From Hamadaea tsunoensis DSM 44101 (lineage in GTDB: Bacteria; Actinomycetota; Actinomycetes; Mycobacteriales; Micromonosporaceae), in assembly GCF_000428945.1 (NCBI RefSeq), contig NZ_AUAX01000046.1, positions 1 through 40,834 on the forward strand: a stretch of 40,834 bases of DNA. Reading direction: 5' to 3'. The notes beneath the pieces are model-generated. The model did not search any database, was not told the DNA's origin, and saw only the letters and a list, made by a program, of their open reading frames with translations. Made by a program: the position numbers and the translations under genes. Shown here in pieces: positions 1 through 40,834 of the stretch; position 1 is the first letter of the stretch, and each line of letters starts with the position of its first letter.

Positions 1-105
1 GATGCTTCGCCCCACTGTGCTGGCAGTGGAGTCCCCGGAGCGCAGCGATAGGGGCGCAACGGTCTCCCGCGGGAGGAGCGGAGGCGAGATCGACGAACCC
101 GGGAC
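1..105. repeat. Dispersed non-coding repeat, copy 1 (inverted partner near 27 kb)
   Basis: The first 105 bases match the reverse complement of 26924-27019 in several blocks: GATGCTTCGCCCCACT, CTGGCAGTGGAG, ACGGTCTCCCGCG, and GAGGAGCGGAGG followed by GAGATCGACGAACCCGGGAC. Similarity stops sharply at GGGAC, just before the 3' end of the lipid kinase gene on the minus strand. The left end is cut by the window edge. No open frame with gene-like character is present. It could be the end of a mobile element or a conserved structured RNA; I do not recognise the family. Confidence 0.65.
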
Positions 106-10938: not shown

Positions 10939-12551
10939 GGCAGCGCGTCGGTGAGATGAGCCAAGCCGTACGCCAGCCGGCGGAAGTAGGTCGCCCGCGA
11001 CAGGTGCAGCCGGTGCGCGAGAAGATCGTGGCCGCCGGCCCGGCGTACGAAGTAGAGATCGAGGATCCGGCCGGCCTCGGCGTCCTCCGGTTCGGGGGAC
11101 GCCGCCAGGGCGCTGATGAGGGCGACGAGCAGCCGGGCGAGCGCCTCGGGGGACCCGGCCCGCTCGGCGAGAGGTGAGGACGCCAGCCGCGCGGGCACCC
11201 GCAGGTTGGTCAGCGCGTCGCGGACGGCTTCTTCGCGAGGGCGGCGCCCGCCCAGCCGGGTCAGCCACGCGGACAGGGAGTCCGGGGCGAACCGCCGCGT
11301 GTAGACGGCGCTGCCGCGCCCGCACCGGTAGACGTCCGACCGGGTCTCGCCGAGCCGGCGCAGCCCGAACCGCGCGGACATCTGCTGGTAGGGCAGGAAC
11401 GGCGTCGACACCACGAGCCGGCCGGCCGTGATCGCCGACGACAGGATCTCCCGGACGAGCATCGGCTGCGTGCGCGCGTACGCGGGGCGGATGGCCATCA
11501 TGCCGACGACGAGACCGGGTTCGCCCGACGACAGCAGGCCGGGCGCGTACTGCTGCAGGAGCGGGTCCAGGACGGGCAGGTCCGCGTCGAGCTCGGTCAG
11601 GTTGACCATCCCGATCGGACGGTCCTCGCCGTCGACGGCCAGCCGGAAACCGTGCGACCGCCCGGCCAGCCACAGCCCGAGCATGCGATCCGCCCGGCGC
11701 CGGGTCAGCCCCTCCGCGGCCGCCCAGATCCGGACCAGCTCGCCCAGCGCGTCCGCGTCCTGCGTCCCCGCGGCACGTACGCGTACCGGCCCGGGCGCCT
11801 CGGCGAACAGATCACGGCGTACGCGCGGGGCGCCGGACAGGTACAGCACCTGATCGGCCAGGCGGGCACGCAGCACGGGGTCCTCGGTCCGGCCGAGCTG
11901 CCGGTACCGGGTCGCGACCGTCCGGGCGGCCGCCTCCGCCCGCCGAGCCGGATGCCGCCACGTGTACGCGAGCTCGAACAGCGTCCGGAACGGCTCGACG
12001 ACGCTCAGCCCGTGCGGTTCGTCGCGTACCACGCTGAGGTCGCGGAGCCGGTCGAAGGCGTCGGCCGGCAGGCGTACCAGGTCGGCGAGGAGATCCGCGT
12101 CAGCGCCGTCCACCGTGGAGATCACGGGCAGGGCGGCGGCCAGCCGGGGACGGATCTCCGTGGCGAGGCGGCGCAGGACCTCGGCACACGCGGCGTCGGC
12201 CAGCGCCCCGGGCACGCGTACTCCCGCGCGGCAGGCCCGGGCCAGCACGTCCGCCAGGAGAGGCAGGCCGCCCGCCAGGCGTACGACGAGATCGGGATCG
12301 TCGAGATCCGCGCAGAGCGAGCGGATGTCGGCGTCGGACCACGGCGTGAGCTCGACGACCTCGAGGCCGGACTGGCCGAGGGGGCGACGGCTCTCCCGCG
12401 CGAGGCCCGGGAAAGCGGCCAGCAGCCGGCTCTTGCCGACGCCGAGCGGACCCGTGACATTGACCGAGACCGGGCCGCTGGCCTGCGCCAACACTGTGAG
12501 CCGGGCCAACGCCTCGTCGCGATGCAGCCGCACGGAGGGCGAGACTACCAT
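10935..12551 (-). CDS. Degenerate P-loop ATPase / GNAT-like / C-terminal HTH protein
   Basis: Of 538 residues, the N-terminus has a Walker A motif GPLGVGKS at 34-41. Only about 25 residues separate it from a STAND-like LTPWSDADIRSLCADLDDPD segment, so the Walker B region seems deleted. A helical part follows. The stretch from about VRVRAAGTQDADALGELVRI to YRCGRG resembles a GNAT acyltransferase fold (PIGMVNLTEL strand, VVGMMAIRPAYARTQPML as motif A). The last 30 residues, LLAHRLHLSRATYFRRLAYG, look like a DNA-binding helix-turn-helix. It may be a regulator that uses a degenerate NTPase and a GNAT-like sensor. The start is uncertain: ATG at 12551 has no Shine-Dalgarno. It diverges from a small secreted protein 54 bp away. 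Confidence 0.7.
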   Translation of the reverse strand: MVVSPSVRLHRDEALARLTVLAQASGPVSVNVTGPLGVGKSRLLAAFPGLARESRRPLGQSGLEVVELTPWSDADIRSLCADLDDPDLVVRLAGGLPLLADVLARACRAGVRVPGALADAACAEVLRRLATEIRPRLAAALPVISTVDGADADLLADLVRLPADAFDRLRDLSVVRDEPHGLSVVEPFRTLFELAYTWRHPARRAEAAARTVATRYRQLGRTEDPVLRARLADQVLYLSGAPRVRRDLFAEAPGPVRVRAAGTQDADALGELVRIWAAAEGLTRRRADRMLGLWLAGRSHGFRLAVDGEDRPIGMVNLTELDADLPVLDPLLQQYAPGLLSSGEPGLVVGMMAIRPAYARTQPMLVREILSSAITAGRLVVSTPFLPYQQMSARFGLRRLGETRSDVYRCGRGSAVYTRRFAPDSLSAWLTRLGGRRPREEAVRDALTNLRVPARLASSPLAERAGSPEALARLLVALISALAASPEPEDAEAGRILDLYFVRRAGGHDLLAHRLHLSRATYFRRLAYGLAHLTDALP

Positions 12552-12605
12552 TGATGAGACTTGATTGATACCGCGCCGCGCGTCGATCCTCCTAGCGTCG
12601 GATGC

Positions 12606-12920
12606 ATGACCATCACCCGCATCCTCGCCGCCGCGGTGCTCGGCGCCGGCAGCCTCGCGTTCCTGTCCACCCAGCCGGCCAACGCCGCCGTGAACCCCGC
12701 CAACTGCACGTGGGGCTACAACCTGTCGATCAACCAGGTCTCCGCGACCTGCTTCGACCCCGTCCAGTCGAACTGGTACCTGCGGCTCGGCTGCGACCGT
12801 TTCGACGGCCGCCACCTCAACATCAACGGAACCCTCGTCTACGGTCCCGGCACGGGCACCTCGATCGCCCGCTGTCCTGCCAACACCGAGATCGTCAGTG
12901 AGACCATCATCAATCTCTGA
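12606..12920 (+). CDS. Small secreted protein with four cysteines
   Basis: The 104-residue protein begins with a signal peptide (Arg at position 5, then about 20 hydrophobic residues, cleavage likely after ANA near residue 27). The mature part of roughly 77 residues has four cysteines (NCTWG, TCFDP, GCDRF, RCPAN), enough for two disulfides, and is rich in Asn, Thr and aromatic residues. No known domain is recognised. ATG at 12606 is chosen because TAGCGT (12593-12598) lies 7 nt upstream, consistent with leaderless transcription, and because it places the signal peptide at the N-terminus. The divergent neighbour is the ATPase/HTH protein, a possible regulator. Confidence 0.75.
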   Translation: MTITRILAAAVLGAGSLAFLSTQPANAAVNPANCTWGYNLSINQVSATCFDPVQSNWYLRLGCDRFDGRHLNINGTLVYGPGTGTSIARCPANTEIVSETIINL

Positions 12921-12961
12921 TGGTGCGCGGGGGCGCTACCGTGTAAGCGGAGGGCGCCCCC

Positions 12962-13444
12962 ATGATCACTTACTATCGCGACCCGACCGTACTGGTGACG
13001 TCGGCGTACGTGCAGGTGGAAGGGCGCGCCTGGCGCCTGAGTGAACTCGAGTACGTCTGGCACCGCGAAGCACCCCCGACCTGGCGCGTACGCGGCCGCA
13101 CCGCCAGTCGCGGCCTCCTCAACACCGCCATGATCCTCGTCGGGATCCTCGGCTTCGTGCTGCTCATCGCATTCCTCGCCGCGGGGTACACCGAGGCCAC
13201 CTCGGTCGGCGGGGTGCCACGGTCCACATTGCTGCTCCTCGCGGTGGTACTCATCCTGATCGGAGTGGGAGTGCCGGTCTGGGAGTGGGCGCTGCACCGG
13301 GTGGACGAGAGCTATGACAAAGGCGATGCGATCTACGAGATCTGGGCGCAGGTGGACGGGCGGTCGGTCCTGGTGCTGCGGCTGGCGGACCTGACGCGCT
13401 TCGGCCAGATCTATCGTGCACTCGAACGAGCGTTGGGCGGATGA
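12962..13444 (+). CDS. DUF6232-like membrane protein
   Basis: The 160-residue protein starts MITYYRDPTVLVTSAYVQVE followed by WRLSELEYVW, a pattern I associate with the actinobacterial DUF6232 family. Two transmembrane segments follow at about residues 52-76 (TAMILVGILGFVLLIAFLAA) and 84-105, then a cytoplasmic-type tail [42 protein letters not shown] sits at a workable distance before the ATG. Function is unknown; the family often occurs near secretion or conflict-related genes but nothing here confirms that. The gene ends right at the start of a repeat-rich non-coding block. Confidence 0.75.
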   Translation: MITYYRDPTVLVTSAYVQVEGRAWRLSELEYVWHREAPPTWRVRGRTASRGLLNTAMILVGILGFVLLIAFLAAGYTEATSVGGVPRSTLLLLAVVLILIGVGVPVWEWALHRVDESYDKGDAIYEIWAQVDGRSVLVLRLADLTRFGQIYRALERALGG

Positions 13445-13449
13445 TCGCC

Positions 13450-13520
13450 GCTTTGCCTTTGCCGCTCCTTGCCTTTGCCGCCTTGGTGCCTTGCCGCCTT
13501 GGTGCCTTGGTGCCTTGCCT
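13450..13520. repeat. 8-bp tandem repeat
   Basis: Units such as TTGGTGCC, TTGCCGCC and TTGCCTTT recur with 8-bp period between the DUF6232 stop codon and a copy of the TTTGTCGCGACTGTCCGA repeat (13519-13537). No coding signal is seen. Confidence 0.7.
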
Positions 13521-13556
13521 TTGTCGCGACTGTCCGACTTGTGCACCCGAGTATCC

Positions 13557-13628
13557 GACGATCTTGCGCGAATGCCCCGAATCTCGTCCCGTGTACCCGA
13601 ATTGCCCGGACATTCGCGCAAGATCGTC
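13557..13628. repeat. 72-bp palindromic repeat, copy 1 of 4
   Basis: GACGATCTTGCGCGAATG (13557-13574) and its exact reverse complement (13611-13628) flank a 36-nt loop. The loop, read on the minus strand, matches the loops of the copies at 27237 and 40173, so this copy is inverted relative to them. Arms and loop are both conserved, suggesting selection on a folded nucleic acid or recognition by a protein. It sits between a TTTGTCGCGACTGTCCGA repeat and a 15-bp tandem array. Confidence 0.9.
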
Positions 13629-13658
13629 GCTGGTGTTGAGGGTCAAGGGCGGCGCTTC

Positions 13659-13770
13659 GGCTCGGCTCGGTCGGGCTCGGCTCGGTCGGGTTCAGCTTGG
13701 TCGGGTTCAGCTTGGTCGGGCTCGGCTTGGTCGGGCTCAGTTTGGTCGAGCTCAGTGTGGCCCGGTTGGG
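13659..13770. repeat. Degenerate 15-bp tandem array
   Basis: About seven to eight units of 15 bp (GGCTCGGCTCGGTCG, GGTTCAGCTTGGTCG, GGCTCAGTTTGGTCG and variants) run directly into the left terminal repeat of the 667-bp element at 13771. Similar 15-bp periodicity is seen at 14440-14570, 35406-35570 and 39420-39460. Confidence 0.85.
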
Positions 13771-14437
13771 CTTTGTCGCGACTGTCCGATATGGGTGGCG
13801 GGGACCATCTTCGATGGCGCGATCGTGTGACGCTATTCCGGCAACGGAGGCTGATTGGCCTTGATCGTGTAACGCCATCTCGGCAGGAGAGCGCTTTCGT
13901 GCCGGAATAGTGCTACATGATCAAGGAGGTGGCCTCGATCATGCTGGGCCCGTGGTCAGGCCGTCCCGGACTTTGTCGCGACTGTCCGATACGGGGGTTG
14001 GGTGGGCCGGCTCGCTGGTGATCGTTTGCGGCTGGGATGTAGTTTTCGGGCCTGTTCCCTCGATCCACTACGGCTGGGATGTAGGTAGGGGGCGGTCTGC
14101 CGCATGTGGAGCGCTGTGAATCTTGGGCGAGGGGCGGGTTTGACATCTCTACCGCTGTGGATCACGCTCAAGCTGCTTGATCGTCGGCTTCTCCCGTGGT
14201 GTGGGAAGGATCTTCCGGCGGGTGGGCCGGGGTCGCCGATTTCTTGATCGATGACGGGTGGGGTGTAAATCCGGCCCGATCTGCATGATCGTTTACGCGT
14301 CAGGTGTAGCTGAGGGCGGTCAGCGTGCTCCAGAACCGTAAACGATCATGCGATCGGTGGCCGTTTTACACCTGAGCCGTAAACGATCACCCCTCCGGCC
14401 CGCCAGCGAGCACCCATATCGGACAGTCGCGACAAAG
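13771..14437. mobile_element. 667-bp non-coding element with 25-bp terminal inverted repeats, copy A
   Basis: The ends 13771-13795 and 14413-14437 are inverted repeats with core TTTGTCGCGACTGTCCGATA; a third, internal direct copy is at 13971-13995. The interior is collinear with the reverse complement of 39461-40125. It holds three half-sites of the type GATCATGTAGCGCCATTCCG (about 13825-13925), two GGCTGGGATGTAG motifs (about 14030-14085), and several GATCGTTTACGG/AGGTGTAAA half-sites (about 14260-14395). No gene-like open frame or transposase was found. The structure suggests a non-autonomous mobile element, but no target duplication was identified and the family is not recognised. Confidence 0.75.
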
Positions 14438-14589
14438 GCCAGCCGGTTCCGGGGCGGGCGGCCCGGGATCAGTCGACCCGGGGCTGGACGGCCCGGCCTG
14501 GCGGGTCGGAGCTGGACGACCCGGGCCAGACGGATCGGCGTTGGATGGCCCGGGGTCAGACGGGTCGGAGTCGGACAGTCGCGACAAAG
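14438..14589. repeat. 15-bp-period sequence ending in an inverted copy of the TIR core
   Basis: Degenerate 15-bp units (for example GGCCCGGGGTCAGAC, GGGTCGGAGTCGGAC) follow element A and end in an inverted copy of the terminal core at 14571-14589. Together with the direct copy at 13519 this gives a nested, roughly symmetrical composite of about 1.07 kb around element A. The remaining stretch 14590-14684 shows nothing further. Confidence 0.6.
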
Positions 14590-14684
14590 GCCAAGCAGGC
14601 CGGCCCGGAACGGTCTCCCCTCAAGCGGAACGGGGGCGAGACCGAGGACCGGAACTCGATCTTGATGGAAAAGGGAGAACAGGA

Positions 14685-15494
14685 TCAGCGGGGACGGCGC
14701 TGGAAGCGGAGGGCCAGGGGTACCCAGAGGCCTTCGAGCTGAATCCCCAGCGTGATCTTGCTCTGCCCGGTCAGCCGGTCGTCGAAGTGGATCGGTACCT
14801 CGACGGTCTTCACGCCCGCCAGCAGGGCCCGGTAGTTCATCTCGATCTGGAAGCTGAATCCGGTGCTGCGTACGTGGGCGAGGTCGATGGACTTGAGGGA
14901 GTCCGCCCGCCACAGCTTGTAGCCCGCCGTCGTGTCGGCGATGCGCAGCCGCAGGACCGTGTTCACGTACGCGCTGCCGCCCCGGCTCAGCATCCGCCGG
15001 TAGAGGGCCCAGTTCGAGGAGAGCGATCCGCTGGCGACGTAGCGGCTGCCGATGATGAGGCCGGCGTCGGTCGACAGCATCGTGCCGAGCATCTGCGGGA
15101 TGAACTCCGGCGGGTGGCTGAGGTCGGCGTCCATCTGGATGATGAACTCGTCGTCGTGGGCCATCGCCTCGGCCATGCCGGCGAGGTGGGCCTTGCCGAT
15201 GCCTTCCTTGGCCGTGCGGTGCACCACGAGCATGCGGTCCGGGCGTTCGGCGTTGTACTCCGCGGCGAGGCGGTCGGCCAGGTCGCCGGTGCCGTCGGGG
15301 GAGTTGTCGTCGACGATGATGACGCGCAGCCGGGAAAGTTTCAGGGCGAACAGCCGCTCCAGCAGTTGCGGCAGGTTGTCCACCTCGTTGTAGGTGGGGA
15401 CCACCACCGCCACCGGCGCGTCGCACCAGGGTTGCGGCAGCACCACGGCGGGGCCGAAGCGTGCGGCCGGGCCGCTTGCGAGCGCTGTGGTCAT
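14685..15494 (-). CDS. GT2 polyprenol-phosphate mannosyltransferase-like
   Basis: The 269-residue soluble GT-A enzyme resembles dolichol/polyprenol-phosphate mannose synthases (DPM1, the Ppm1 catalytic domain). These transfer mannose from GDP-mannose to a polyprenyl phosphate for lipoglycan and protein O-mannosylation. Motifs: PTYNE at 33-37, DDNSPDG at 62-68, DADLSH at 122-127 (metal/sugar-nucleotide site), then DTTAGYKLW and STGFSFQIEMNYRA. Nothing suggests C-terminal membrane helices. ATG at 15494 follows GGAGAGGAA with 7 nt spacing; earlier in-frame codons are in non-coding sequence. It is monocistronic, with a repeat block behind it and the RNase gene upstream on the same strand. Confidence 0.88.
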   Translation of the reverse strand: MTTALASGPAARFGPAVVLPQPWCDAPVAVVVPTYNEVDNLPQLLERLFALKLSRLRVIIVDDNSPDGTGDLADRLAAEYNAERPDRMLVVHRTAKEGIGKAHLAGMAEAMAHDDEFIIQMDADLSHPPEFIPQMLGTMLSTDAGLIIGSRYVASGSLSSNWALYRRMLSRGGSAYVNTVLRLRIADTTAGYKLWRADSLKSIDLAHVRSTGFSFQIEMNYRALLAGVKTVEVPIHFDDRLTGQSKITLGIQLEGLWVPLALRFQRRPR

Positions 15495-15657
15495 CCGGGC
15501 GTTCCTCTCCGCATCATCCGATCCGGCGGACCGGCTCGGCCTTTCAGGGACGGCAGTCGAGTCGGTAAAGCCTAGCCTGTGGCCGGGCGGGTGCGGCAAA
15601 TCGTGCCGCCCACCCGGCCGTGACGACCGTCTGAGCAGGAGGAACGCGTACGCGTGA

Positions 15658-16080
15658 TCAGAGCTGGTAGAACGTGACGTAGTGGTCGGGGGTGAACCAG
15701 ACGACGCCGCTGCTGCGATTGACGACGATCCGGTACGCGTCCCGCGCCGCGCCCTTGGCCCGCGGGTACACGTCGTACTCGTAGTAGGTGGCGCCCGCCG
15801 GGAGTTCGCCTTCCCGGTTCTGGAACCGGCCGCCGGTGTAGTTGTAGAGGCCGCCGCTCCAGGTGTACCAGCCGGCGGTGGTCGGGTAGCCCTTGGCCGA
15901 CCAGCCCGTCCGGGCGGTACGCGCGTCGGCGCAGCGGGAGACGGTGCAGGTGGGGTAGACGGACGCCTGGGCGGGCTGCGCGACGACCGTGGTCGCGACG
16001 AGGCCGGCGAGGACGGCGACGAGGGTGACGACGAGCCGGGCGACCCGGCGGTACGCGGTCGAGGTTTCCATGGCGACCAT
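15658..16080 (-). CDS. Secreted guanyl-type ribonuclease (RNase Sa/barnase family)
   Basis: The 140-residue precursor has a signal peptide (hydrophobic core 16-34, AQA at 37-39 as likely cleavage site) and a mature domain of about 100 residues. The second half aligns with RNase Sa: GRFQNREGELPAGATYYEYDV, then Glu101, Arg113, Arg117 and His133 in the spacing of RNase Sa Glu54, Arg65, Arg69 and His85. These residues cleave RNA after guanosine. Cys45 and Cys50 may form a disulfide near the N-terminus. No barstar-like inhibitor gene is adjacent. ATG at 16080 is tentative; 16071 is also possible. The AT-rich upstream stretch (16081-16140) probably holds the promoter. Confidence 0.87.
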   Translation of the reverse strand: MVAMETSTAYRRVARLVVTLVAVLAGLVATTVVAQPAQASVYPTCTVSRCADARTARTGWSAKGYPTTAGWYTWSGGLYNYTGGRFQNREGELPAGATYYEYDVYPRAKGAARDAYRIVVNRSSGVVWFTPDHYVTFYQL

Positions 16081-16147
16081 GATGTGACGACTTTCGTCAA
16101 TATGGAACATCACGAATACAAAAAACCGCGTGAACTCTGGGGCACAC

Positions 16148-16192
16148 GCAAGGCGGTGACGCGCAAGGCGGTGACGCGTACGGCGGTAATCA
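16148..16192. repeat. Three 15-bp direct repeats upstream of ECF sigma gene
   Basis: GCAAGGCGGTGACGC occurs twice in exact tandem (16148-16162, 16163-16177) and a third, diverged copy starts with GTACGGCGGTAAT (16178). They lie 49-93 bp upstream of the sigma factor start, in the gap to the divergent RNase gene, and could be regulator binding sites. Confidence 0.7.
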
Positions 16193-16240
16193 TGACCGGG
16201 CCCGCGACAGAAGAAGGGCAGGAGCAGAACGGAGGACCGC

Positions 16241-16747
16241 ATGGGGCCACCGCACGACGAACAGTGGTTCACCGGAACCTACGAGAGACACTATCCGCAG
16301 GTCGTCCGCTATGTGCTGCGCCGGACGGCCGACGCCGACCTGGCTGCCGAGCTGGCCCAGGACACGTTCGCCGTGGCCTGGCGGCGGCGCCGGGACGTGC
16401 CCGAGCACTGCCTGCCCTGGCTGTACGCGGTCGCCCGGCGGCTGCTCGCCAACCACTGGCGGGCCGGGCGTTCGGGGGAGCGGGCCATGGCCGAGGTGGA
16501 CGCCGGGTACTGGGACGGGGACGCCGATGCTGTCGCCGGTGTCGCTGATCTGCGTACGGCGCTGGGTGCGTTGTCCGAGGCGGATCAGGAGATCCTCCGG
16601 CTCGTGGGCTGGGAGGAGCTGACCGTCGCCGAGGCCGCGCAGGTGCTCGGGTGTACGCGTACGACGGCCGCGGTGCGGTTGCACCGGGCGCGCAAACGGC
16701 TGCTGGCGAGCCTGGACCGGCCCAGGGAAAGGGTGGAGACCCGATGA
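16241..16747 (+). CDS. ECF RNA polymerase sigma factor
   Basis: The 168-residue protein contains sigma region 2 (FTGTYERHYPQVVRYVLRRT, AELAQDTFAVAWRRR, PWLYAVARRLLANHWR) and region 4 (LSEADQEILRLVGWEELTVA, then the recognition helix RTTAAVRLHRARKRLLA). Length is usual for a two-domain ECF factor. GGAGG lies upstream of the ATG. The stop codon overlaps the start of the next gene (ATGA), so the two are translationally coupled. Like many such pairs, the downstream membrane protein may regulate the sigma factor. Three 15-bp repeats in the upstream gap are candidate control sites; no autoregulated promoter could be identified with confidence. Confidence 0.9.
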   Translation: MGPPHDEQWFTGTYERHYPQVVRYVLRRTADADLAAELAQDTFAVAWRRRRDVPEHCLPWLYAVARRLLANHWRAGRSGERAMAEVDAGYWDGDADAVAGVADLRTALGALSEADQEILRLVGWEELTVAEAAQVLGCTRTTAAVRLHRARKRLLASLDRPRERVETR

Positions 16748-26923: not shown

Positions 26924-27019
26924 GTCCCGGGTTCGTCGATCTCACCTCCGCTCCTCGCGCGGGAGACCGTTCCGGCCCCGGGGGGCCTCCACTGCCAGGT
27001 GAGTGGGGCGAAGCATCGT
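26924..27019. repeat. Dispersed non-coding repeat, copy 2 (inverted relative to 1-105)
   Basis: Read on the minus strand this segment matches window positions 1-105 in several exact blocks and ends at the same GGGAC boundary. It lies in an 850-bp gap (26563-27414) between GH16 and rpmJ. The part 26621-26923 shows no convincing gene; a 79-codon minus-strand frame there is unlike known proteins. Confidence 0.65.
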
Positions 27020-27117
27020 TCACTGCCGTCCGCTCACGGTTTCACCCCTTCACCCCTGGCCTTGACGACTGTCCGGTACGCGTGTTCGGCGGCCCGGACG
27101 CGCACGTCAGCCGCAAT

Positions 27118-27226
27118 CGATCAAGGACTCAGCGCCGCCGATCCACATGACGGAAGATCGTTCCCGCATCGCGAACAACGACGAGCCGACCCGCCCAGCC
27201 GGCATATCGGACAGTTGCGGAAAGGG
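27118..27226. repeat. Partial third copy of the 0.67-kb element
   Basis: GATCAAG at 27120, then CGGAAGATCGTTCCCGCATC (about 27150-27169) matches 39647-39700 of element B with the same spacing. The segment then ends with a diverged inverted copy of the terminal core (27203-27224). The central part of the element is missing between these blocks. A 72-bp palindrome follows 13 bp later, as it follows element B. Confidence 0.55.
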
Positions 27227-27236
27227 CCCGCTGGCG

Positions 27237-27307
27237 GCGATCTTGCGCGAATGTTCGGGCATTTCTGGCACACCGGACGAAATTCGGGACATTCGCGCAA
27301 GATCGTC
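27237..27307. repeat. 72-bp palindromic repeat, copy 2 of 4
   Basis: CGATCTTGCGCGAATG (27238-27253) and its complement within 27290-27307 enclose a 36-nt loop nearly identical to that of the copy at 40173. A G-rich stretch (27310-27405) follows before rpmJ. Confidence 0.88.
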
Positions 27308-27414
27308 GGATGGGGCGGCGGGGTCGCCGCGGGCGGGGAGGGCGGGGGAGGGGCGGGGGGAATTTCGGTGGGGGTGGGGTGGTTGTGGGGGCGGAAGGAA
27401 AGGGGTGACCTGCG

Positions 27415-35370: not shown

Positions 35371-35405
35371 TCACCGCCGTCCCCGCGCCCCACGCCGCCC
35401 CCCTC

Positions 35406-35570
35406 ACGCCCGGCCCCCTTGCGCCCGGCCCCCTTGCGCCCGGCCCCCTTGCGCCCGGCCCCCTTGCGCCCGGCCCCCTTGCGCCCGGCCCCCTTGCGCC
35501 CGGCCCCCTTGCGCCCGGCCCCCTTGCGCCCGGCCCCCTTGCGCCCGGCCCCCTGGCCCCCGGCCCCCTT
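35406..35570. repeat. Near-perfect 15-bp tandem array, 11 units
   Basis: The unit GCGCCCGGCCCCCTT is repeated about eleven times; the first, ninth-to-tenth and last units carry changes. Because 15 is divisible by three it stays open in several frames, but the predicted peptides are simple repeats without a gene context. It runs into the palindromic repeat at 35584. Confidence 0.92.
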
Positions 35571-35583
35571 GCGCCGCCCCTGC

Positions 35584-35655
35584 GACGATCTTGCGCGAAT
35601 GTACCGGCTTTTCGGGCATTTCAGGCAGAATTCGAGGCATTCGCGCAAGATCGTT
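35584..35655. repeat. 72-bp palindromic repeat, copy 3 of 4
   Basis: GACGATCTTGCGCGAATG (35584-35601) pairs with 35638-35655 (one end mismatch). The 36-nt loop is more diverged than in the other copies. It is flanked by the 15-bp array on the left and a 21-bp array on the right. Confidence 0.88.
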
Positions 35656-35659
35656 GGGA

Positions 35660-35743
35660 GTGGACGCAAGGCCGCCGGGGGTGGACGCAAGGCTGCCGGG
35701 AGTGGAGGCGAGGCCGCCGGGAGTGGAGGCGAGATCGTCGGGA
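35660..35743. repeat. 21-bp tandem array, four units
   Basis: Four units of 21 bp beginning GTGGACGCAAGGCCGCCGGG (later units GTGGAGGCGAGGCCGCCGGG) reach to 5 bp before the MarR stop codon. The last unit contains GATCGTCGGG, echoing the palindrome arm. Confidence 0.8.
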
Positions 35744-35748
35744 GTGGG

Positions 35749-36162
35749 TCAGAGGCAGCGGCGCAGGAGCGCGGTGAGCGTCGCGCGTTCCTCGGCGGAG
35801 AGCGGCGCGAGCACCTCGGCGGTGACCGCCTCGGCCGTCTGCTCACAGGCTTCGAGCTCGCGGACGCCGCCCTCCGTGAGGGTCACGAGGTGCCGGCGGC
35901 GGTCGGCGGGATCGCGCTCCCGCCGGGCCAGGCCGGCCTGCTCCAGGGCGTCGATCGTGCGGACCAGGTCGCTGGGGTCCTGGCCGAGAAGATCGCAGAG
36001 GTCGCGTTGAGAGCTGGGGCCGCGTTCGGTGAGGGCGGCGAGGACCGCCATCTCGCGGAGCGTCCGGCCGCGTCCGGCCAACTGGTCCATGAGGCGCCGG
36101 CGGCCTCGCTTGCCGAGCTGGGAGAGCTGGTAGACGGGGAGGGAGTGGAGGCGGTCGACCAT
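35749..36162 (-). CDS. MarR-family regulator
   Basis: The 137-residue winged-helix protein shows the MarR pattern: LREMAVLAALTERGPSSQRD, LCDLLGQDPSDLVRTIDALE as DNA-binding helices, and RRERDPADRRRHLVTLTEGG as the wing. ATG at 36162 has TATCCT exactly 6 nt upstream, suggesting a leaderless transcript. The gene diverges from a VOC gene 29 bp away with a TGGTAA-G-TTACCA palindrome between them, so it likely represses itself and that gene in response to a small aromatic or electrophilic ligand (inference from the family). Confidence 0.9.
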   Translation of the reverse strand: MVDRLHSLPVYQLSQLGKRGRRRLMDQLAGRGRTLREMAVLAALTERGPSSQRDLCDLLGQDPSDLVRTIDALEQAGLARRERDPADRRRHLVTLTEGGVRELEACEQTAEAVTAEVLAPLSAEERATLTALLRRCL

Positions 36163-36168
36163 GGGTTC

Positions 36169-36189
36169 AGGATAGTTGGTAAGTTACCA
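36169..36189. promoter_or_regulatory. Divergent MarR/VOC promoter region with operator
   Basis: TGGTAA-G-TTACCA (36177-36189) is a perfect palindrome. It overlaps TAAGTT (36180-36185), the predicted -10 of the VOC gene, and lies 2 bp from TATCCT (36174-36169, minus strand), the predicted -10 of marR. Both hexamers are 6 nt from their start codons. Confidence 0.65.
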
Positions 36190-36191
36190 CT

Positions 36192-36566
36192 ATGGCTAAC
36201 TACCCACGAATCTACCCGCGCGTCATCGCCGACGACTTCGCCGCCACCGTCCGCTTCTACACCGAGACGCTCGGCCTCGCCGCCGAGAAGGTCGTGCCCC
36301 AGTTCGAGTACGCGAGCTTCGACTTCGACGGTGAGACGGGTCTGGCGATCCTCGGGCGCGCGGCGCTCGGTGCGGCGGTCGCGACCGAGCCCGGCCGGGG
36401 TGCGGGGATGATGCTCGTCCTGGTCGTGCCGGACGTCGACGGACTGGTCGCGCGGTTGCCCGCCGAGGTGGTCGTCGCCCCGCCGGCCGACCGTCCAGGA
36501 TGGAACCTCAGGTCGGCGTACGTGCGCGATCCGGAAGGCAACCTCGTGGAGATTCAGACCTACTGA
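36192..36566 (+). CDS. VOC/glyoxalase-family protein
   Basis: The 124-residue protein is a single VOC domain: NYPRIYPRVIADDFAATVRF, YTETLGLAAEKVVPQFEYAS, then LVVPDVDGLVARLP and a C-terminal YVRDPEGNLVEIQTY with the typical metal-ligand glutamate. It may be a glyoxalase, dioxygenase or binding protein. Divergent placement from a MarR gene with a shared operator suggests it handles the MarR effector. The ATG at 36192 is directly preceded by the -10 and 6 nt, with no ribosome-binding site. Confidence 0.87.
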   Translation: MANYPRIYPRVIADDFAATVRFYTETLGLAAEKVVPQFEYASFDFDGETGLAILGRAALGAAVATEPGRGAGMMLVLVVPDVDGLVARLPAEVVVAPPADRPGWNLRSAYVRDPEGNLVEIQTY

Positions 36567-36571
36567 AGTGG

Positions 36572-36600
36572 TTGACGCGCTCGTTGTACGCAAGTTAGTT
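36572..36600 (+). promoter_or_regulatory. Promoter of GH35-type gene
   Basis: TTGACG (36572-36577), a 17-bp spacer and TTAGTT (36595-36600) lie 41 bp upstream of the GTG start. ACTT and AAGT half-sites at 36602-36617 around the likely transcription start could bind a regulator. Confidence 0.55.
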
Positions 36601-36641
36601 TTACTTCCGAAATAAGTACCGCGATAGCCGGGAGTACGGGC

Positions 36642-38615
36642 GTGAGCAGCGAAAACGGGCGTGTCTTGAACACCGCCGACTACCCCTACTATCGCGATGA
36701 TGCCGAGGTCTGGGCCGACCGGCTGCGCGCCCTGCGCGACGACCTCGGCATCACCGTGGTCACCTGCTACATCCCGTGGCGGCACCACCAGCCCGTGGCC
36801 GGCGAGGCGCCCGACTTCACGGGCCAGACGCATCCGAGCCGCAACGTGGTCGGCTTCCTGGAGCTGTGCCAGGCGGCGGGGCTCACGGTGATCGCGAAGC
36901 CGGGCCCGTTCATCCACGCCGAGACGACCTACGGCGGCCTGCCGGACTGGGTCGGCCCGATCGCGGACGAGCGCATCGAACCGCTGCTGGACTCGGCCGG
37001 GCAGCCCTCGCGGTGGGGCTGGGACCTGCCCGAGCACCCGTCCGGGCGGCCGCTGCCGGCGCCGTTCGGAGCAGTGTTCTCGGCGTACACGCGGGAATGG
37101 CTGGATGCGGTCGGGCGGCAGGTGCTCGACGGGCGGCTGTTCCCCGAGGGGCCGGTCGCGATGATCCAGATCGCCAACGAGGGCATCTACACCAACGGCG
37201 CCCGTGAGGTCACCGCCTTCGACTACAGCCCGTCGGGGCTCGCCTTCTACCGCGAGTGCCTCGCCGAGTGGTACGGGTCGGTGGACGCGTACAACCTGCG
37301 GCACGGGACGGGTTTCGGGTCCTGGTCCGACGTCGACGGGCCCCGGGCCTGGGATGCCAAGCACCCTCTCGTTTACGCCGACTGGGGCCGGTTCCACGAC
37401 GCGTACCTCGGCCGGGTCTATCGCATGTGGACGGACTGGGTCGGCGTCGACGTCCCGACGGTGGTGAACCTCAACCCGCCGACGATCAAGGAACTCGACG
37501 ACTGGCTGGCCCGCGTACGCCCGGCCGGCTGGGACCGCATCGACTACGGCTTCACCAACTGGATGGGCGTGGTCTCGACCGACCTGGACGCGCACGCCCG
37601 CTACGTGATCGCGGCCAAGCTCGCCCCCGGCCCGAACATGGAGGAGAACTGGGGCTTCTCCGAGCTCTACGACCGCGCGTACGCCGACGCGGCCACGAGT
37701 CACCACCAGACGCTGCTGGCGCTGGCCGCCGGGGCGACCGGATTCAACGTCTACACCGGCGTCGGCACCTCCGGCTGGCTGCGGGAGCTGGACGACCAGC
37801 ACACCGAGCCGTACCCGGACTGCTCGCCGATCGCCGAGGACGGCTCGGCCACGGTGAAGGCGCCGGTCGTGAAGGCGCTCGCGGACTTCTTCGCCCGGCA
37901 CGGCGACGAGTTCCTCGCCTGCGTCCCCGAGACCGGTGGCGCCTTCGGCCTCTACCGCCCGTACGCGGGGATCGCCGCCTGGTCGGCCGACCCGGACGTG
38001 CCGCAGTGCGGCCGGGTGCTGCGCGCGTACCACGAGCGGATGCGGTCGGCCGGACTCGACTACACGCTCGTCGATCTCGAAGCCGCCACGGCGGACGAAC
38101 TGGCGGCCGTCGAGCACCTGACCGTCCCCGGTGGAAATTTCATGGCCGAGGACGTGCAACGGAAACTGGCCGCGTACGCCACCGCCGGCGGGCTGCTCAC
38201 GATCGAGGGGCCGCTGCCGGAGACCGACGAACAGCTGCGGCCGTGCGCCCTGCTGGCCGGGATTCCGCTGGTCGCCGGCCCGACAGCCGAGCCGGGCGCC
38301 CGGGTCGTCGCCGGACACGCGGACGTCTACCGGCGTACGGGCGAGGGCGGCGTCGCGTACCTCACGGTTCTTGCCCAGAGTGACAACGACGGCCCGGTGC
38401 GGATCGCGGTCGAGGGCGAGGAGCTGGCCTTCACCCTGGCCCGCGGCGGCGCGGCGATCGTGCGGCTGGTCGACGGCGCGCTGGACGACGTCATAGTCAA
38501 GGGCACCAATTCGTTCCTGGACAGTGCCGAGGTCGCGGCGGTGACCCACCGGGGCACCATGATCAGCGCGACCGGACCCGGCGACCTGGTGATCATCGGC
38601 GGTCTACCGGGTTGA
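36642..38615 (+). CDS. GH35-type beta-galactosidase-like glycosidase
   Basis: The 657-residue protein has a TIM-barrel of the beta-galactosidase (GH35/GH42-like) clan. Near the N-terminus are VVTCYIPWRHHQP and VIAKPGPFIHAETTYGGLPD, typical of GH35. The acid/base glutamate is Glu180 in IQIANEG, and the nucleophile is Glu334 or Glu335 in MEENWG. The region from about 480 resembles a glutamine-amidotransferase-like trimerisation domain (YTLVDLEAATADELAAVEHL), as in GH42-type enzymes, and beta-strands end the protein. No signal peptide is present, so it is cytoplasmic and acts on imported oligosaccharides. GTG at 36642 follows GGGAG. It is monocistronic with its own promoter and a terminator. Confidence 0.82.
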   Translation: MSSENGRVLNTADYPYYRDDAEVWADRLRALRDDLGITVVTCYIPWRHHQPVAGEAPDFTGQTHPSRNVVGFLELCQAAGLTVIAKPGPFIHAETTYGGLPDWVGPIADERIEPLLDSAGQPSRWGWDLPEHPSGRPLPAPFGAVFSAYTREWLDAVGRQVLDGRLFPEGPVAMIQIANEGIYTNGAREVTAFDYSPSGLAFYRECLAEWYGSVDAYNLRHGTGFGSWSDVDGPRAWDAKHPLVYADWGRFHDAYLGRVYRMWTDWVGVDVPTVVNLNPPTIKELDDWLARVRPAGWDRIDYGFTNWMGVVSTDLDAHARYVIAAKLAPGPNMEENWGFSELYDRAYADAATSHHQTLLALAAGATGFNVYTGVGTSGWLRELDDQHTEPYPDCSPIAEDGSATVKAPVVKALADFFARHGDEFLACVPETGGAFGLYRPYAGIAAWSADPDVPQCGRVLRAYHERMRSAGLDYTLVDLEAATADELAAVEHLTVPGGNFMAEDVQRKLAAYATAGGLLTIEGPLPETDEQLRPCALLAGIPLVAGPTAEPGARVVAGHADVYRRTGEGGVAYLTVLAQSDNDGPVRIAVEGEELAFTLARGGAAIVRLVDGALDDVIVKGTNSFLDSAEVAAVTHRGTMISATGPGDLVIIGGLPG

Positions 38616-38622
38616 TTGTGAC

Positions 38623-38666
38623 GCGCGCCACGAGCTCCGCCCCGTTCGGCGGGGCTCTCGGCGCGC
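38623..38666 (+). terminator. Two-step hairpin terminator
   Basis: GCGCGCC and GGCGCGC (outer, 7 bp) enclose GAGCTCCGCC and GGCGGGGCTC (inner, 10 bp with one G-T pair) around a 6-nt loop. It begins 8 bp after the glycosidase stop codon and ends before the GtrA promoter. Confidence 0.8.
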
Positions 38667-38697
38667 ACGCCGATCACTGCGGAGATAGGCTGCCCCG

Positions 38698-39378
38698 GTG
38701 ACCGACGAACCCAAGGGATTGCGCAGCCGGGCCTCCAGCATGATCGGCCGCGTGCTGGCCAAGCTGCCGGAGCCGCTCCGCGCGAAGATCCTGCACCACC
38801 GTGAAGCGTTGAAGTTCCTCATCGTCGGCGGAACCTGCTTCATGATCACCGTAGTGATCAACTACGCGCTCAAGCTCACGATCCTGGGCGACAAACCGGT
38901 CACGGCGCTCACCATCGCCACGATCCTCGCGACCGTGGCCTCCTACGTCCTCAACCGCGAGTGGTCCTTCCGGACCCGCGGCGGCCGCGAACGCCACCAC
39001 GAAGCCGCGCTCTTCTTCGCGATCAGCGGCATCGGCGTCGTCCTCAACGACGTACCCATGTGGATCGCCCGCTACATGCTCGACATCCGCGTACCGGACG
39101 TGACCCGGTTCACCCAGGAGGTCAGCGACTTCGTCTCCGGCATCATCCTCGGCACGCTGCTGGCGATGGTGTTCCGGCTGTGGGCGTTCAAGAAGTGGGT
39201 CTTCCCGCACCAGGACGTCCGGCCCGCCGGCAACTCCACGGTCGCGGCCCACCTCACCGCGGGCACCAAGGGCCATCCGATCGTCGCGCCGACCGCGGCT
39301 AATCGCCGCAAATCCGGCAATCCTGGGCCTAAGGCTCCGTCCGGGAAGAAGGTCTCCTCCGGCAAGGGCCGGCGCTGA
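38698..39378 (+). CDS. GtrA-family membrane protein
   Basis: The 226-residue protein contains a GtrA domain with four membrane segments (ALKFLIVGGTCFMITVVINY; ALTIATILATVASYVLNREW; HHEAALFFAISGIGVVLNDV; IILGTLLAMVFRLWAFKKWV). A basic, flexible C-terminal tail (about 175-226) follows. GtrA proteins are thought to flip or shuttle lipid-linked sugars, for example in arabinogalactan or teichoic acid assembly. GTG at 38698 has TAGGCT (38686-38691) 6 nt upstream, again a leaderless pattern. The window's polyprenol-phosphate GT2 gene is 24 kb away. The gene ends at a repeat block. Confidence 0.9.
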   Translation: MTDEPKGLRSRASSMIGRVLAKLPEPLRAKILHHREALKFLIVGGTCFMITVVINYALKLTILGDKPVTALTIATILATVASYVLNREWSFRTRGGRERHHEAALFFAISGIGVVLNDVPMWIARYMLDIRVPDVTRFTQEVSDFVSGIILGTLLAMVFRLWAFKKWVFPHQDVRPAGNSTVAAHLTAGTKGHPIVAPTAANRRKSGNPGPKAPSGKKVSSGKGRR

Positions 39379-39397
39379 CTCGCCCCCTTCGCCCGTC

Positions 39398-39460
39398 CTT
39401 TGCCGCGACTGTCCAACTCCGGCTCGTCTGCCCCGGTCCGTCTGCCCCAGCCTGGTCGGC
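39398..39460. repeat. Diverged TIR core plus 15-bp-period sequence
   Basis: A variant of the terminal core (TTTGCCGCGACTGTCCAACT at 39399) begins 20 bp after gtrA. It is followed by degenerate 15-bp units leading into element B, mirroring the arrangement around element A. Confidence 0.65.
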
Positions 39461-40125
39461 TTTTGTCGCGACTGTCCGATATGGGCGCTCGGTGGCGGCC
39501 GGGGCGGTGATCGTTTACGGCTCAGGTGTAAAACGGCCGCCGAGTGCATGATCGTTTGCGGTTCTGGAGCATGCTGACCGCCTCCGGCTACACCTGATGC
39601 GTAAACGATCATGCGGACCGGGCCGGATTTACACCTCACCCGTAAACGATCAAGAGATCGGCGGCATCTGCCCACCTGGCGGAAGATTGTTCCCGCATCG
39701 CAGGCGACGGCCGGCGCCGGAACTGCTGGGCCGTGATCCACAGCGCCCGGGATGTACAAACCGCACCCTCGCCCAAGATCGAAAGCGGTTCGGTGTAGGA
39801 AATCGCCCCATAGCTACATCCCAGCCGTAGTGGATCGAGGGAGCGGGTCCGAAAACTACATCCCAGCCGCGAGCGATCACCGATAAGCCCACCCGCCCGA
39901 ACCCCGTATCGGACAGTCGGGACAAAGTCCGGGGGAGCCGACCGCGGGCCCGGCATGATCGCGGCAATCTCCTTGATCATGTAGCGCCATTCCGGCAAAA
40001 GAGCGCTCCCCTGCCGAAATGGCGCTACACGATCAAGGTCGACGGGTCCCCGTCGCCGGAATAGCGTTACATGATCAAAGAGTCGCGGCGTGCACCTCCG
40101 CCCATACTGGACAGTCGCGACAAAG
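39461..40125. mobile_element. 665-bp non-coding element with 25-bp terminal inverted repeats, copy B
   Basis: The ends 39461-39485 and 40101-40125 carry the TTTGTCGCGACTGTCCGATA core in opposite orientation; an internal copy is at 39903-39927. The whole segment is collinear with the reverse complement of 13771-14437 and has almost the same length. It includes GATCGTTTACGG/AGGTGTAAA half-sites (39509-39655), two ACATCCCAGCC motifs (about 39810-39870) and three half-sites related to GATCATGTAGCGCCATTCCG (39975-40080). No coding gene was found. Orientation is inverted relative to copy A. Confidence 0.75.
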
Positions 40126-40172
40126 TCCGACCGGGCCCAGCCGAACCAGCGCCCCCGCCCCCTGAAACCGGC

Positions 40173-40244
40173 GACGATCTTGCGCGAATGTTCGGGCAAT
40201 ACAGGCACTCCGGACGAAATTCGGGGCATTCGCGCAAGATCGTC
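40173..40244. repeat. 72-bp palindromic repeat, copy 4 of 4
   Basis: GACGATCTTGCGCGAATG (40173-40190) and its exact reverse complement (40227-40244) enclose a 36-nt loop almost identical to that of copy 2. It lies 32 bp beyond the 3' end of the edge gene and 47 bp from element B. Confidence 0.9.
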
Positions 40245-40276
40245 GAGGTTGATCGTGGAGTGTGGGTGGGAGGGGG

Positions 40277-40834
40277 TTACAGGTAGCGGACTGCTATGGA
40301 GGCGAAGACGTCGGCGTCGGTGTCCGGGCGGCAGAAGAGGTTGCGCAGGCCGATGGTCGCCGGGTCGTCGGGATCCAGTCCCGCCGAGAGGACGGACGAT
40401 CGCCAGCGGTCCGTGTCGGAACAGGCGTCGAGCAGTTCGGCGAGGATGATCCGCCGGGTCGACGCCTCTTCGCCGCGGTGCGCGCCGAGCGCGTCGAGCA
40501 GCCACGGCCAGCGGACCATGACCTCGACGAAGCGGGCCATCTCGATGCTGTGCCGTTCGATCGCGGTCAGGCTGCTGGACAGGAAGCCCGTGCGGTAGTC
40601 CAGCACCATGTAGAACCGCCACAGGTTGACGAACGCCTTGGTCTGCCGCGGGTTGCGGGCGGGCAGGGCGAGCACGGCGGTACGCAGCGCGCGGCGTACG
40701 GGGGCGAGGCTTTCGAGGTATTCGGCGAGTTGTACGCCCTGATCCTCGGGCCCGGCGACGGTCACCTCCTCGGTGGACGTGTCGATGTTGACGCCGCCGC
40801 CGCTGACGGAGGCCGCCGGCGGGACGGAGACACG
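40277..40834 (-). CDS. C-terminal part of a large protein, possibly a KAP-type P-loop NTPase
   Basis: The frame stays open from the stop at 40277 to the window edge, so at least 185 residues of a longer protein are present; the GTG at 40765 is internal. The visible part is helical: APVRRALRTAVLALPARNPR, QTKAFVNLWRFYMVLDYRTG, IERHSIEMARFVEVMVRWPW. The stretch NPRQTKAFVNLWRF resembles the NPRxxKRFxN motif that follows the NTPase core in KAP-family P-loop ATPases, some of which act in defence or membrane processes. The Walker motifs would be outside the window, so this assignment is tentative. Confidence 0.5.
   Translation of the reverse strand, partial: RVSVPPAASVSGGGVNIDTSTEEVTVAGPEDQGVQLAEYLESLAPVRRALRTAVLALPARNPRQTKAFVNLWRFYMVLDYRTGFLSSSLTAIERHSIEMARFVEVMVRWPWLLDALGAHRGEEASTRRIILAELLDACSDTDRWRSSVLSAGLDPDDPATIGLRNLFCRPDTDADVFASIAVRYL

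What the first reader, a model, noticed from the sequence alone, without database searches (positions are those of the whole stretch)
13771..14437. Two inverted copies of a 0.67-kb non-coding element with 25-bp terminal inverted repeats
13771-14437 and 39461-40125 are collinear over their whole length when one is reversed, differ by 2 bp in length, and both end in inverted copies of a TTTGTCGCGACTGTCCGATA core. They carry no transposase but are packed with internal half-sites of three further motif types. This has the form of a non-autonomous transposon, or of a multi-site protein-binding or structured element. The 25-kb inverted pair could also mediate inversion of the whole interval. I know of no named family with these ends.
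Basis: partly seen in the sequence, partly recalled or inferred. Interest (0 to 1): 0.78.

Follow-up and report, generated by a model that had tools for sequence, protein, structure and literature searches.

The report
Onion-like hairpin repeat in one actinomycete
The pair of 0.67-kb sequences is part of a large family of layered, non-coding hairpin repeats at gene ends in this bacterium; no gene that moves it was found in it, and the layered form was not found in the relatives searched.

Summary
In detail: 13771-14437 and 39462-40125 (reversed) are 81% identical, non-coding, and end in inverted TTTGTCGCGACTGTCCGATA ("m"). But this is not the repeating unit. It is the inner part of a composite that in full form runs between two inverted 131-bp arms (M1). 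Two full copies 110 kb apart are 93% identical over 939 columns, and the match stops at the M1 ends.

The own genome holds 224 M1 arms and 326 m motifs (0 controls each). In a 1.61-Mb sample the family covers 2.1%. The layering is regular, with few exceptions: the B core lies between facing m's; hairpin M3 and palindrome A lie between m's pointing the same way; no neighbouring m pair points outward (0 of 61). Elements sit at gene 3' ends: 41 convergent, 35 tandem, 3 divergent of 79.

No RAYT (Y1) gene, no clear target duplication and no transposase were found. In 299 other family genomes only short partial matches to the composite appeared. However, an M3 hairpin model matches 11 other genera; loci read from six share the CGATCTTG base with clade-specific stems.

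Best reading: a non-autonomous, BIME-like palindromic mosaic. Its spread is inferred from its distribution; its mover and 3'-end role are also inferred. New variant of a known kind.

The parts
13520..13537 (+). outer m motif, ...CGACT variant
13556..13630 (.). M3 hairpin: inverted arms CGACGATCTTGCGCGAATG / CATTCGCGCAAGATCGTCG
13659..13763 (.). degenerate 15-bp tandem repeat between M3 and the reported left end
   Evidence: D2
13772..13791 (+). m motif, left end of the reported element
13820..13941 (.). A palindrome (TTGATC...GATCAA)
13972..13991 (+). m motif, left border of the B core
14017..14166 (+). BL cassette: two-level palindrome of GATC...GCGGCTGGGATGTAG units
14245..14389 (+). BR cassette: two-level palindrome (145 nt) TGATCGTTTACGGCTGAGGTGT...ACACCTCAGCCGTAAACGATCA in consensus
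14417..14436 (-). m motif, right end of the reported element
14571..14588 (-). outer m motif, ...CGACT variant
14603..14646 (-). weak, degenerate M1-like arm (10.5 bits)
39399..39416 (+). outer m motif of the second copy
39462..39481 (+). m motif, end of the second copy
39508..39652 (-). BR cassette, second copy
39733..39880 (-). BL cassette, second copy
   Evidence: L004:1772-1919
39909..39926 (-). m motif between B and A, second copy
39951..40078 (.). A palindrome, second copy
40107..40124 (-). m motif, outer end of the second copy (variant)
40173..40245 (.). M3 hairpin beside the second copy
1..104 (-). M1 arm, cut by the start of the contig
26925..27044 (+). M1 arm of a reduced composite
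27090..27180 (-). B fragment of the reduced composite
27237..27308 (.). M3 hairpin of the reduced composite
35584..35655 (.). solo M3 hairpin, beside a 15-bp tandem array

Best explanation
A non-autonomous, extragenic palindromic mosaic repeat, BIME-like in build and place but larger. Shown: a composite [M1] (m + A or M3 hairpin) m B m (A or M3 + m) [M1], about 0.94 kb in its fullest common form, dispersed through this genome with sharp M1 ends, mostly between convergent genes or downstream of tandem genes. Inferred: (a) it is copied in trans by an enzyme not identified here that acts on the palindromic ends (by eye, M1 begins TTTTG|TCCCGGG and m TTTGTCGCG; both hold TTTGTCSCG). (b) Layers are gained and lost at m by nested insertion or by recombination between direct m copies. 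(c) Transcribed, its hairpins act as 3'-end structures (two-way terminators or mRNA ends), which would be why insertions survive there.
For: Unit: C9:146171-147106 and C9:256869-257806 are 93% identical over 939 aligned columns, from the first to the last M1 base; the 300-base flanks on either side do not align. Number: 224 M1 30-mers with up to 3 mismatches, 0 control; 326 m 18-mers with up to 2 mismatches, 0 control; 326 exact M3 half-sites, 0 control. Load: 90 clusters, 34,009 of 1,605,111 bases, 2.1%, after dropping the contig overlap (91 clusters with it). Grammar: 61 neighbouring m-m intervals, 28 facing, 33 same direction, 0 outward. Intervals with B alone: 22 of 22 facing; A alone: 9 of 9 same direction; M3 alone: 12 of 12 same direction. 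14 hold no module and 4 are mixed, among them one with A+B in the same direction, one with A+B facing and one with B+M3 facing, which break the simple rule. Place: 41 convergent, 35 tandem, 3 divergent of the 79 clusters with genes on both sides (11 more lie at stretch ends), against 269, 814 and 273 of 1356 gene pairs; Fisher p 5e-11 for convergent, 3e-5 for divergent. 2 of 91 clusters lie mostly inside a predicted gene. Fold: the 667-nt window copy has z -9.7 on + and -17.8 on -, 20 shuffles each. M3 filled and empty states occur at one position of the composite. Hairpin class beyond this genome: M3 model at E<=0.001 in 28 of 121 family genomes, 12 of 44 genera, own included; in 16 loci read, arm changes match.
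Against: No movement was seen directly and no second strain was available. The mover is unknown. M3 arms hardly vary within the genome (10 of 23 pairs never vary) and show no clear covariation beyond shuffles (covariation score reached by 26 of 500, two-sided changes by 131 of 500), so the case for a selected RNA fold in this species is weak; sequence recognition as DNA fits as well. 41 of 268 convergent pairs carry an element, 80 of 268 if the R1 hairpin family is added; the rest do without, so it cannot be the general terminator. No U-run follows M3 (flanks, by eye). Gene calls come from a simple finder of my own.
Confidence: 0.62

Rival explanations
1. An ordinary MITE family: a DDE transposase of an IS family moves nested elements with TTTGTCSCG inverted ends; duplications have decayed and the parent IS lies in unassembled or unfetched DNA.
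For: Sharp inverted ends and unit-wise copying. M1 and m share TTTGTCSCG at their ends (by eye). Several contigs end inside these repeats, so part of the family is missing from the assembly.
Against: No clear excess of direct repeats at 24 paired elements. Paired elements are 490-1337 bp; a long reading frame from each of the two largest has no Pfam match. The mosaic of independent hairpins is not usual for a MITE (from general knowledge).
Confidence: 0.2
2. Not mobile: arrays of binding sites or terminators kept by selection and homogenised by gene conversion.
For: Near-invariant M3 arms with variable loops. Strong preference for gene 3' ends. The same hairpin class in other genera.
Against: Whole 939-column units at unrelated places with a sharp edge. 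No element module in three congeners. Modules present or absent at the same inner position.
Confidence: 0.14
3. REPIN/BIME moved by a RAYT (Y1) transposase.
For: M3 looks like a REPIN: two inverted conserved arms around a variable loop, high copy, extragenic.
Against: No PF01797 match in the own genome, while 5 of 14 control genomes match.
Confidence: 0.03
4. The 25-kb inverted pair is an inversion switch.
For: Two inverted copies at 81% identity.
Against: 81% identity is low for homologous recombination (general knowledge). Inverted m and M1 copies are common in this genome. One gene pair across the interval keeps its present relative orientation in G002 and G003.
Confidence: 0.01

Closest known systems
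BIMEs / REP sequences (Di Nocera et al. 2013, PMC3733652: abstract and passages read)
   Same: Extragenic palindromic units, many in opposite-oriented neighbours, lying downstream of genes and between tandem or convergent genes, some species-specific. [quoted passage not shown]
   Different: REPs there are 20-40 bp; here hairpins are about 75-150 bp in composites near 1 kb with long inverted outer arms. 'actinobacter', Micromonospora, Frankia and Streptomyces have no occurrence in its main text.
REPINs with RAYTs (recalled; PMC3116915 seen as a search listing with the start of its abstract only)
   Same: Two inverted conserved arms around a variable loop, as in M3.
   Different: No Y1 transposase found in this genome.
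MITEs (recalled; definition also in passages of PMC3733652)
   Same: Non-coding, inverted ends, many copies.
   Different: No clear target duplication, no parent element found, nested layers with direct m repeats.
Integron cassette arrays (recalled comparison)
   Same: Cassettes separated by directly repeated short sites.
   Different: No genes seen in the cassettes, and m points to the core from both sides; no integrase was looked for. A resemblance only.

Membership tests
MITE | inverted ends | tested here: met
   m and M1 inverted pairs
MITE | no protein-coding capacity | tested here: met
   no Pfam match in the 4 element frames tested (1 each from L295 and L042, 2 overlapping the window copies); 2 of 91 clusters mostly inside a predicted gene
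MITE | target-site duplication | tested here: not met
   at 28 solo M3 no offset had 4 or more sharing a direct repeat of 3-9 bases; 24 paired elements, best offsets at or near the shuffle maximum (one, 15/15 bases out with 4 bases, 4 against a maximum of 3, inside the AAGATC-rich block, out of several hundred offsets tried)
MITE | autonomous relative with the same ends | tested here: inconclusive
   none among 24 paired elements and only short partial matches in 299 other family genomes (two candidate places scored per genome); about four fifths of the own genome was not read through for M1 pairs
REP/BIME | extragenic palindromic units, mosaic arrays, 3'-end location | tested here: met
REP/BIME | GTAG or CGTC tag next to a short hairpin | not tested
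   read only by eye; M3 arms end in GATCGTCG, BL units in GATGTAG
REPIN/RAYT | RAYT (Y1_Tnp) gene in the genome | tested here: not met
   0 matches; 5 of 14 controls match
known structured RNA | match to an Rfam family | tested here: not met
   (window 13000-15000): only a sub-threshold miRNA hairpin, 27.6 bits against 168
intrinsic terminator | stops transcription in vivo | not testable with these tools
   no expression data

The most novel reading that the evidence does not exclude
In this one species such hairpins have been assembled into a self-spreading, onion-ordered composite joined at a dedicated site (m) by a recombination or transposition system that is neither RAYT-driven nor MITE-like.
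Probability: 0.22. Interest if true: 0.78.

Novelty: new variant of a known kind. Interest (0 to 1): 0.52.

Why it matters
High-copy palindromic repeats in bacteria are mostly explained by RAYT transposases or IS-derived MITEs (general knowledge). Here is a family covering 2.1% of the sampled sequence and found in 41 of 268 convergent gene gaps, 80 of 268 with the R1 hairpins, with a regular module order and neither mover found. It gives a concrete system in which to ask how such repeats spread and whether they serve as gene-end signals in high-GC actinomycetes. It also warns assemblers: several contig ends lie in these repeats.

Tried and rejected
Rejected: RAYT-driven REPIN; known RNA family; coding element; MITE with target duplication; C36 copy as a separate locus; carriage on known plasmids (667-bp copy and 938-bp composite) or phages (composite): no match; IMG/VR: one stray m 18-mer and no M1 19-mer. 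Idea that the AT-rich CAAGATC block outside M1 is a target palindrome split by insertion: left and right blocks of one locus are not clearly more alike than those of different loci (permutation 0.07, n = 24; one locus, L049, does show a 27-base match). Empty sites in congeners: the two flank genes tested lie far apart and are 50-66% identical in protein, so no base-exact empty site; the congener matches that I re-checked lie in genes, and one in the tandem repeat. An in-frame start at M1 was considered by eye and dropped. Within-species covariation as proof of an RNA fold: not supported for M3, weak for BR (5 of 32 pairs with a two-sided change). The spread of M3-type hairpins by the covariance model is biased towards hairpins by construction. 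A check without the model is the GATC excess in perfect hairpin arms: own 150 of 312 against 13.2 with letters shuffled, own outside modules 22 of 169 against 3.1, G002+G003 9 of 32 against 1.3. Alignment A2 had 6 of 25 rows in the wrong orientation and was not used. Papers: PMC3733652 abstract and passages; all others only as search listings. In those five searches of the PMC library I saw no title describing this family; that is not proof that it is unpublished.

Full report
What was reported and what is there. The two window segments are real, inverted copies: 81% identity over query 1-666, with inverted TTTGTCGCGACTGTCCGATA near both ends (the outer end of copy 2 carries two changes). The window is a whole contig, C43, of a 9.48-Mb, 68-contig genome. 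The matching place on C36 is the same locus: C36:1-5116 equals C43:35719-40834 at 100%.

The reported unit is not the unit. In the own genome, of the 41 longest blast rows, 9 (8 loci) span most of 1-667, 30 begin at query 161-249, at or near the second m motif, and 2 are shorter. Outside the reported ends lie further modules. I fetched stretches of the genome that with the window make 1,610,227 bases, 17% of it, and mapped five modules: M1 (131-bp arm), m (the reported end motif), M3 (73-bp hairpin), A (about 110-bp palindrome) and B (about 403 bp, itself two 145-150-bp cassettes BL and BR, each a two-level palindrome). They form 91 clusters; one, C36:3681-4527, is the overlap duplicate, leaving 90.

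Sharp outer ends. Two full composites on contig C9, 110 kb apart, align over 939 columns at 93%, and the alignment starts and stops at the M1 ends although 300 bases of flank were offered on each side. I take this as the best evidence that M1-to-M1 is what spreads. Among own-genome loci in hand, 24 distinct M1-M1 pairs measure 490-1337 bp. Next to M1 lies an AT-rich block with AAGATC or GATCTT within 40 nt at 40 of 50 ends in the sample; it differs between copies.

Order of modules. Of 61 neighbouring m-m intervals in the sample (m with up to 3 mismatches), 28 face each other, 33 point the same way and none point apart. Intervals with B alone face in 22 of 22; those with A alone run the same way in 9 of 9 and with M3 alone in 12 of 12. 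14 hold no module (10 same-direction, 4 facing). 4 hold mixed sets: B+M3 facing, A+B facing, A+B same direction, A+M1 same direction. By reading, m next to B usually ends in ATA and m outside M3 in ACT; I did not count this. One interior position is found with M3 (for example C9:257528-257600) and without it (C48:12454-12691), so layers come or go separately. The clusters share ancestry, so these counts are not independent events.

How many. M1 30-mer with up to 3 mismatches: 224, reversed control 0. m 18-mer with up to 2: 326, control 0. M3 half-site exact: 326, control 0. In the sample without the overlap the clusters cover 34,009 of 1,605,111 bases, 2.1%; with a further hairpin family R1 (78 copies) 2.5% (overlap included). 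Counts are lower bounds, since several contigs begin or end inside these repeats.

Where. Of 90 distinct clusters, 79 have a gene on both sides: 41 convergent, 35 tandem, 3 divergent, against 269, 814 and 273 of 1356 neighbouring gene pairs. Fisher p is 5e-11 for convergent and 3e-5 for divergent; against intergenic length free of elements and R1 the binomial p values are 3e-13 and 1e-11. Gaps to the stop codon are often 10-50 bp. Both window copies lie between convergent genes: DUF6232 / glycosyltransferase 2 at copy 1, and GtrA-like / no Pfam match at copy 2. 41 of 268 convergent pairs carry an element, 80 of 268 when R1 hairpins are counted too.

Relatives. B was sought in 40 relatives, three of them congeners: one 31-bp match, in G018. 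In the three congeners the matches to window 11000-16500 that I re-checked lie in genes, one in the tandem repeat, none in a module. The 938-bp composite in 299 other family genomes: nine with short partial matches of 26-84 bases, none a composite; in so wide a search only two candidate places per genome were scored. Outside the family: one stray 20-mer in a collection of 84,980 species (own genome left out by the tool), no match in plasmids or phages, one m 18-mer and no M1 19-mer in IMG/VR. So the composite is, as far as seen, confined to this species.

The parts are older than the whole. The M3 model matches 28 of 121 family genomes, own included, in 12 of 44 genera; the congeners G001-G003 have none (stricter filters, 37 candidates scored per genome). 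I read 14 of the 15 loci returned from other genomes (L259 is cut by a contig end) and 2 of the 9 loci from G133 and G144. All 16, from six genera, hold CGATCTTG...CAAGATCG at the stem base, while the next ten positions differ by clade and match on the other arm 7-10 of 10: CGCGAACTGT in genus g17, CACTTTCTGC in g4, CGCTTATCGA in g51, GAGTTGTGGT in g60, CACTTGTGGT in g11. Some loci that I left out of that table deviate, for example GATCTTGTACGGATG in L235. The model favours hairpins, so this is biased. Without the model, perfect hairpins with arms of 12 or more hold GATC far more often than with letters shuffled, in the own sample and in G002+G003. The BR model matches 3 other genomes weakly, one of them (G104, 43.5 bits) over its full length with other arm letters.

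Movers. No Y1 transposase (PF01797) in the own genome; 5 of 14 control genomes match. No clear target duplication at 28 solo M3 or 24 paired elements (one of several hundred offsets, inside the AAGATC-rich block, passed its 200 shuffles by one). One long reading frame from each of the two largest paired elements, and two overlapping the window copies, have no Pfam match. No other transposase family was searched for, and a parent element may sit in the part of the genome that I did not read.

Structure. Folded as RNA the 667-nt copy reaches z -9.7 (+) and -17.8 (-), 0 of 20 shuffles as good in either case. Within the species M3 arms are almost invariant and show no clear covariation above shuffles; BR has 5 of 32 pairs with two-sided changes. 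So palindromy is certain; whether DNA or RNA is what is recognised is open.

Reading. What it works like: a BIME-like palindromic mosaic that spreads without its own gene and is tolerated, perhaps used, at gene ends. What it is a member of: no family whose defining mover or duplication could be tested positive. Shown: repeat family, sharp unit ends, module order, 3'-end location, no Y1 gene found. Inferred: mobility in trans, joining at m, terminator-like role.

Noticed in passing
L145-L224 (own genome), e.g. C1:57079-57197: A further hairpin family R1, CCAAGATCCCGTTTGGATCAGGG...CCTGATCCAAACGGGATCTTGG, 78 copies in 1.61 Mb; of 76 with genes on both sides 45 convergent, 23 tandem, 8 divergent. 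G002 and G003 hold look-alikes with other stems.
   Followed up: partly
window 35395-35575; 13659-13763: 15-bp tandem arrays lie right beside M3 hairpins; several solo M3 flanks elsewhere show short tandem repeats too.
   Followed up: no
window 1 and 35719-40834: The contig starts inside an M1 arm, and its last 5116 bases are identical to the start of contig C36: unmerged overlap.
   Followed up: yes
L013 1963-2341 (C23 contig end): An M3 hairpin seems interrupted in its loop by unrelated sequence at the contig end, perhaps an IS that targets the hairpin; read by eye only.
   Followed up: no
L228, L248, L267, L268, L270, and downstream of the DUF6232 orthologue in G003: Hairpins of several genera carry a GACACGCC-like loop although their stems differ (seen by eye).
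   Followed up: no
L266 1501-1647 (G104): A single two-level cassette like BR in another genus, outer arms TGATCGTTTGCAGC / GCTGCAAACGATCA.
   Followed up: no
M1 flanks, own genome: The roughly 27 bases outside M1 show a period of three, two weak bases then one more often G or C (108 ends); no reason known.
   Followed up: partly
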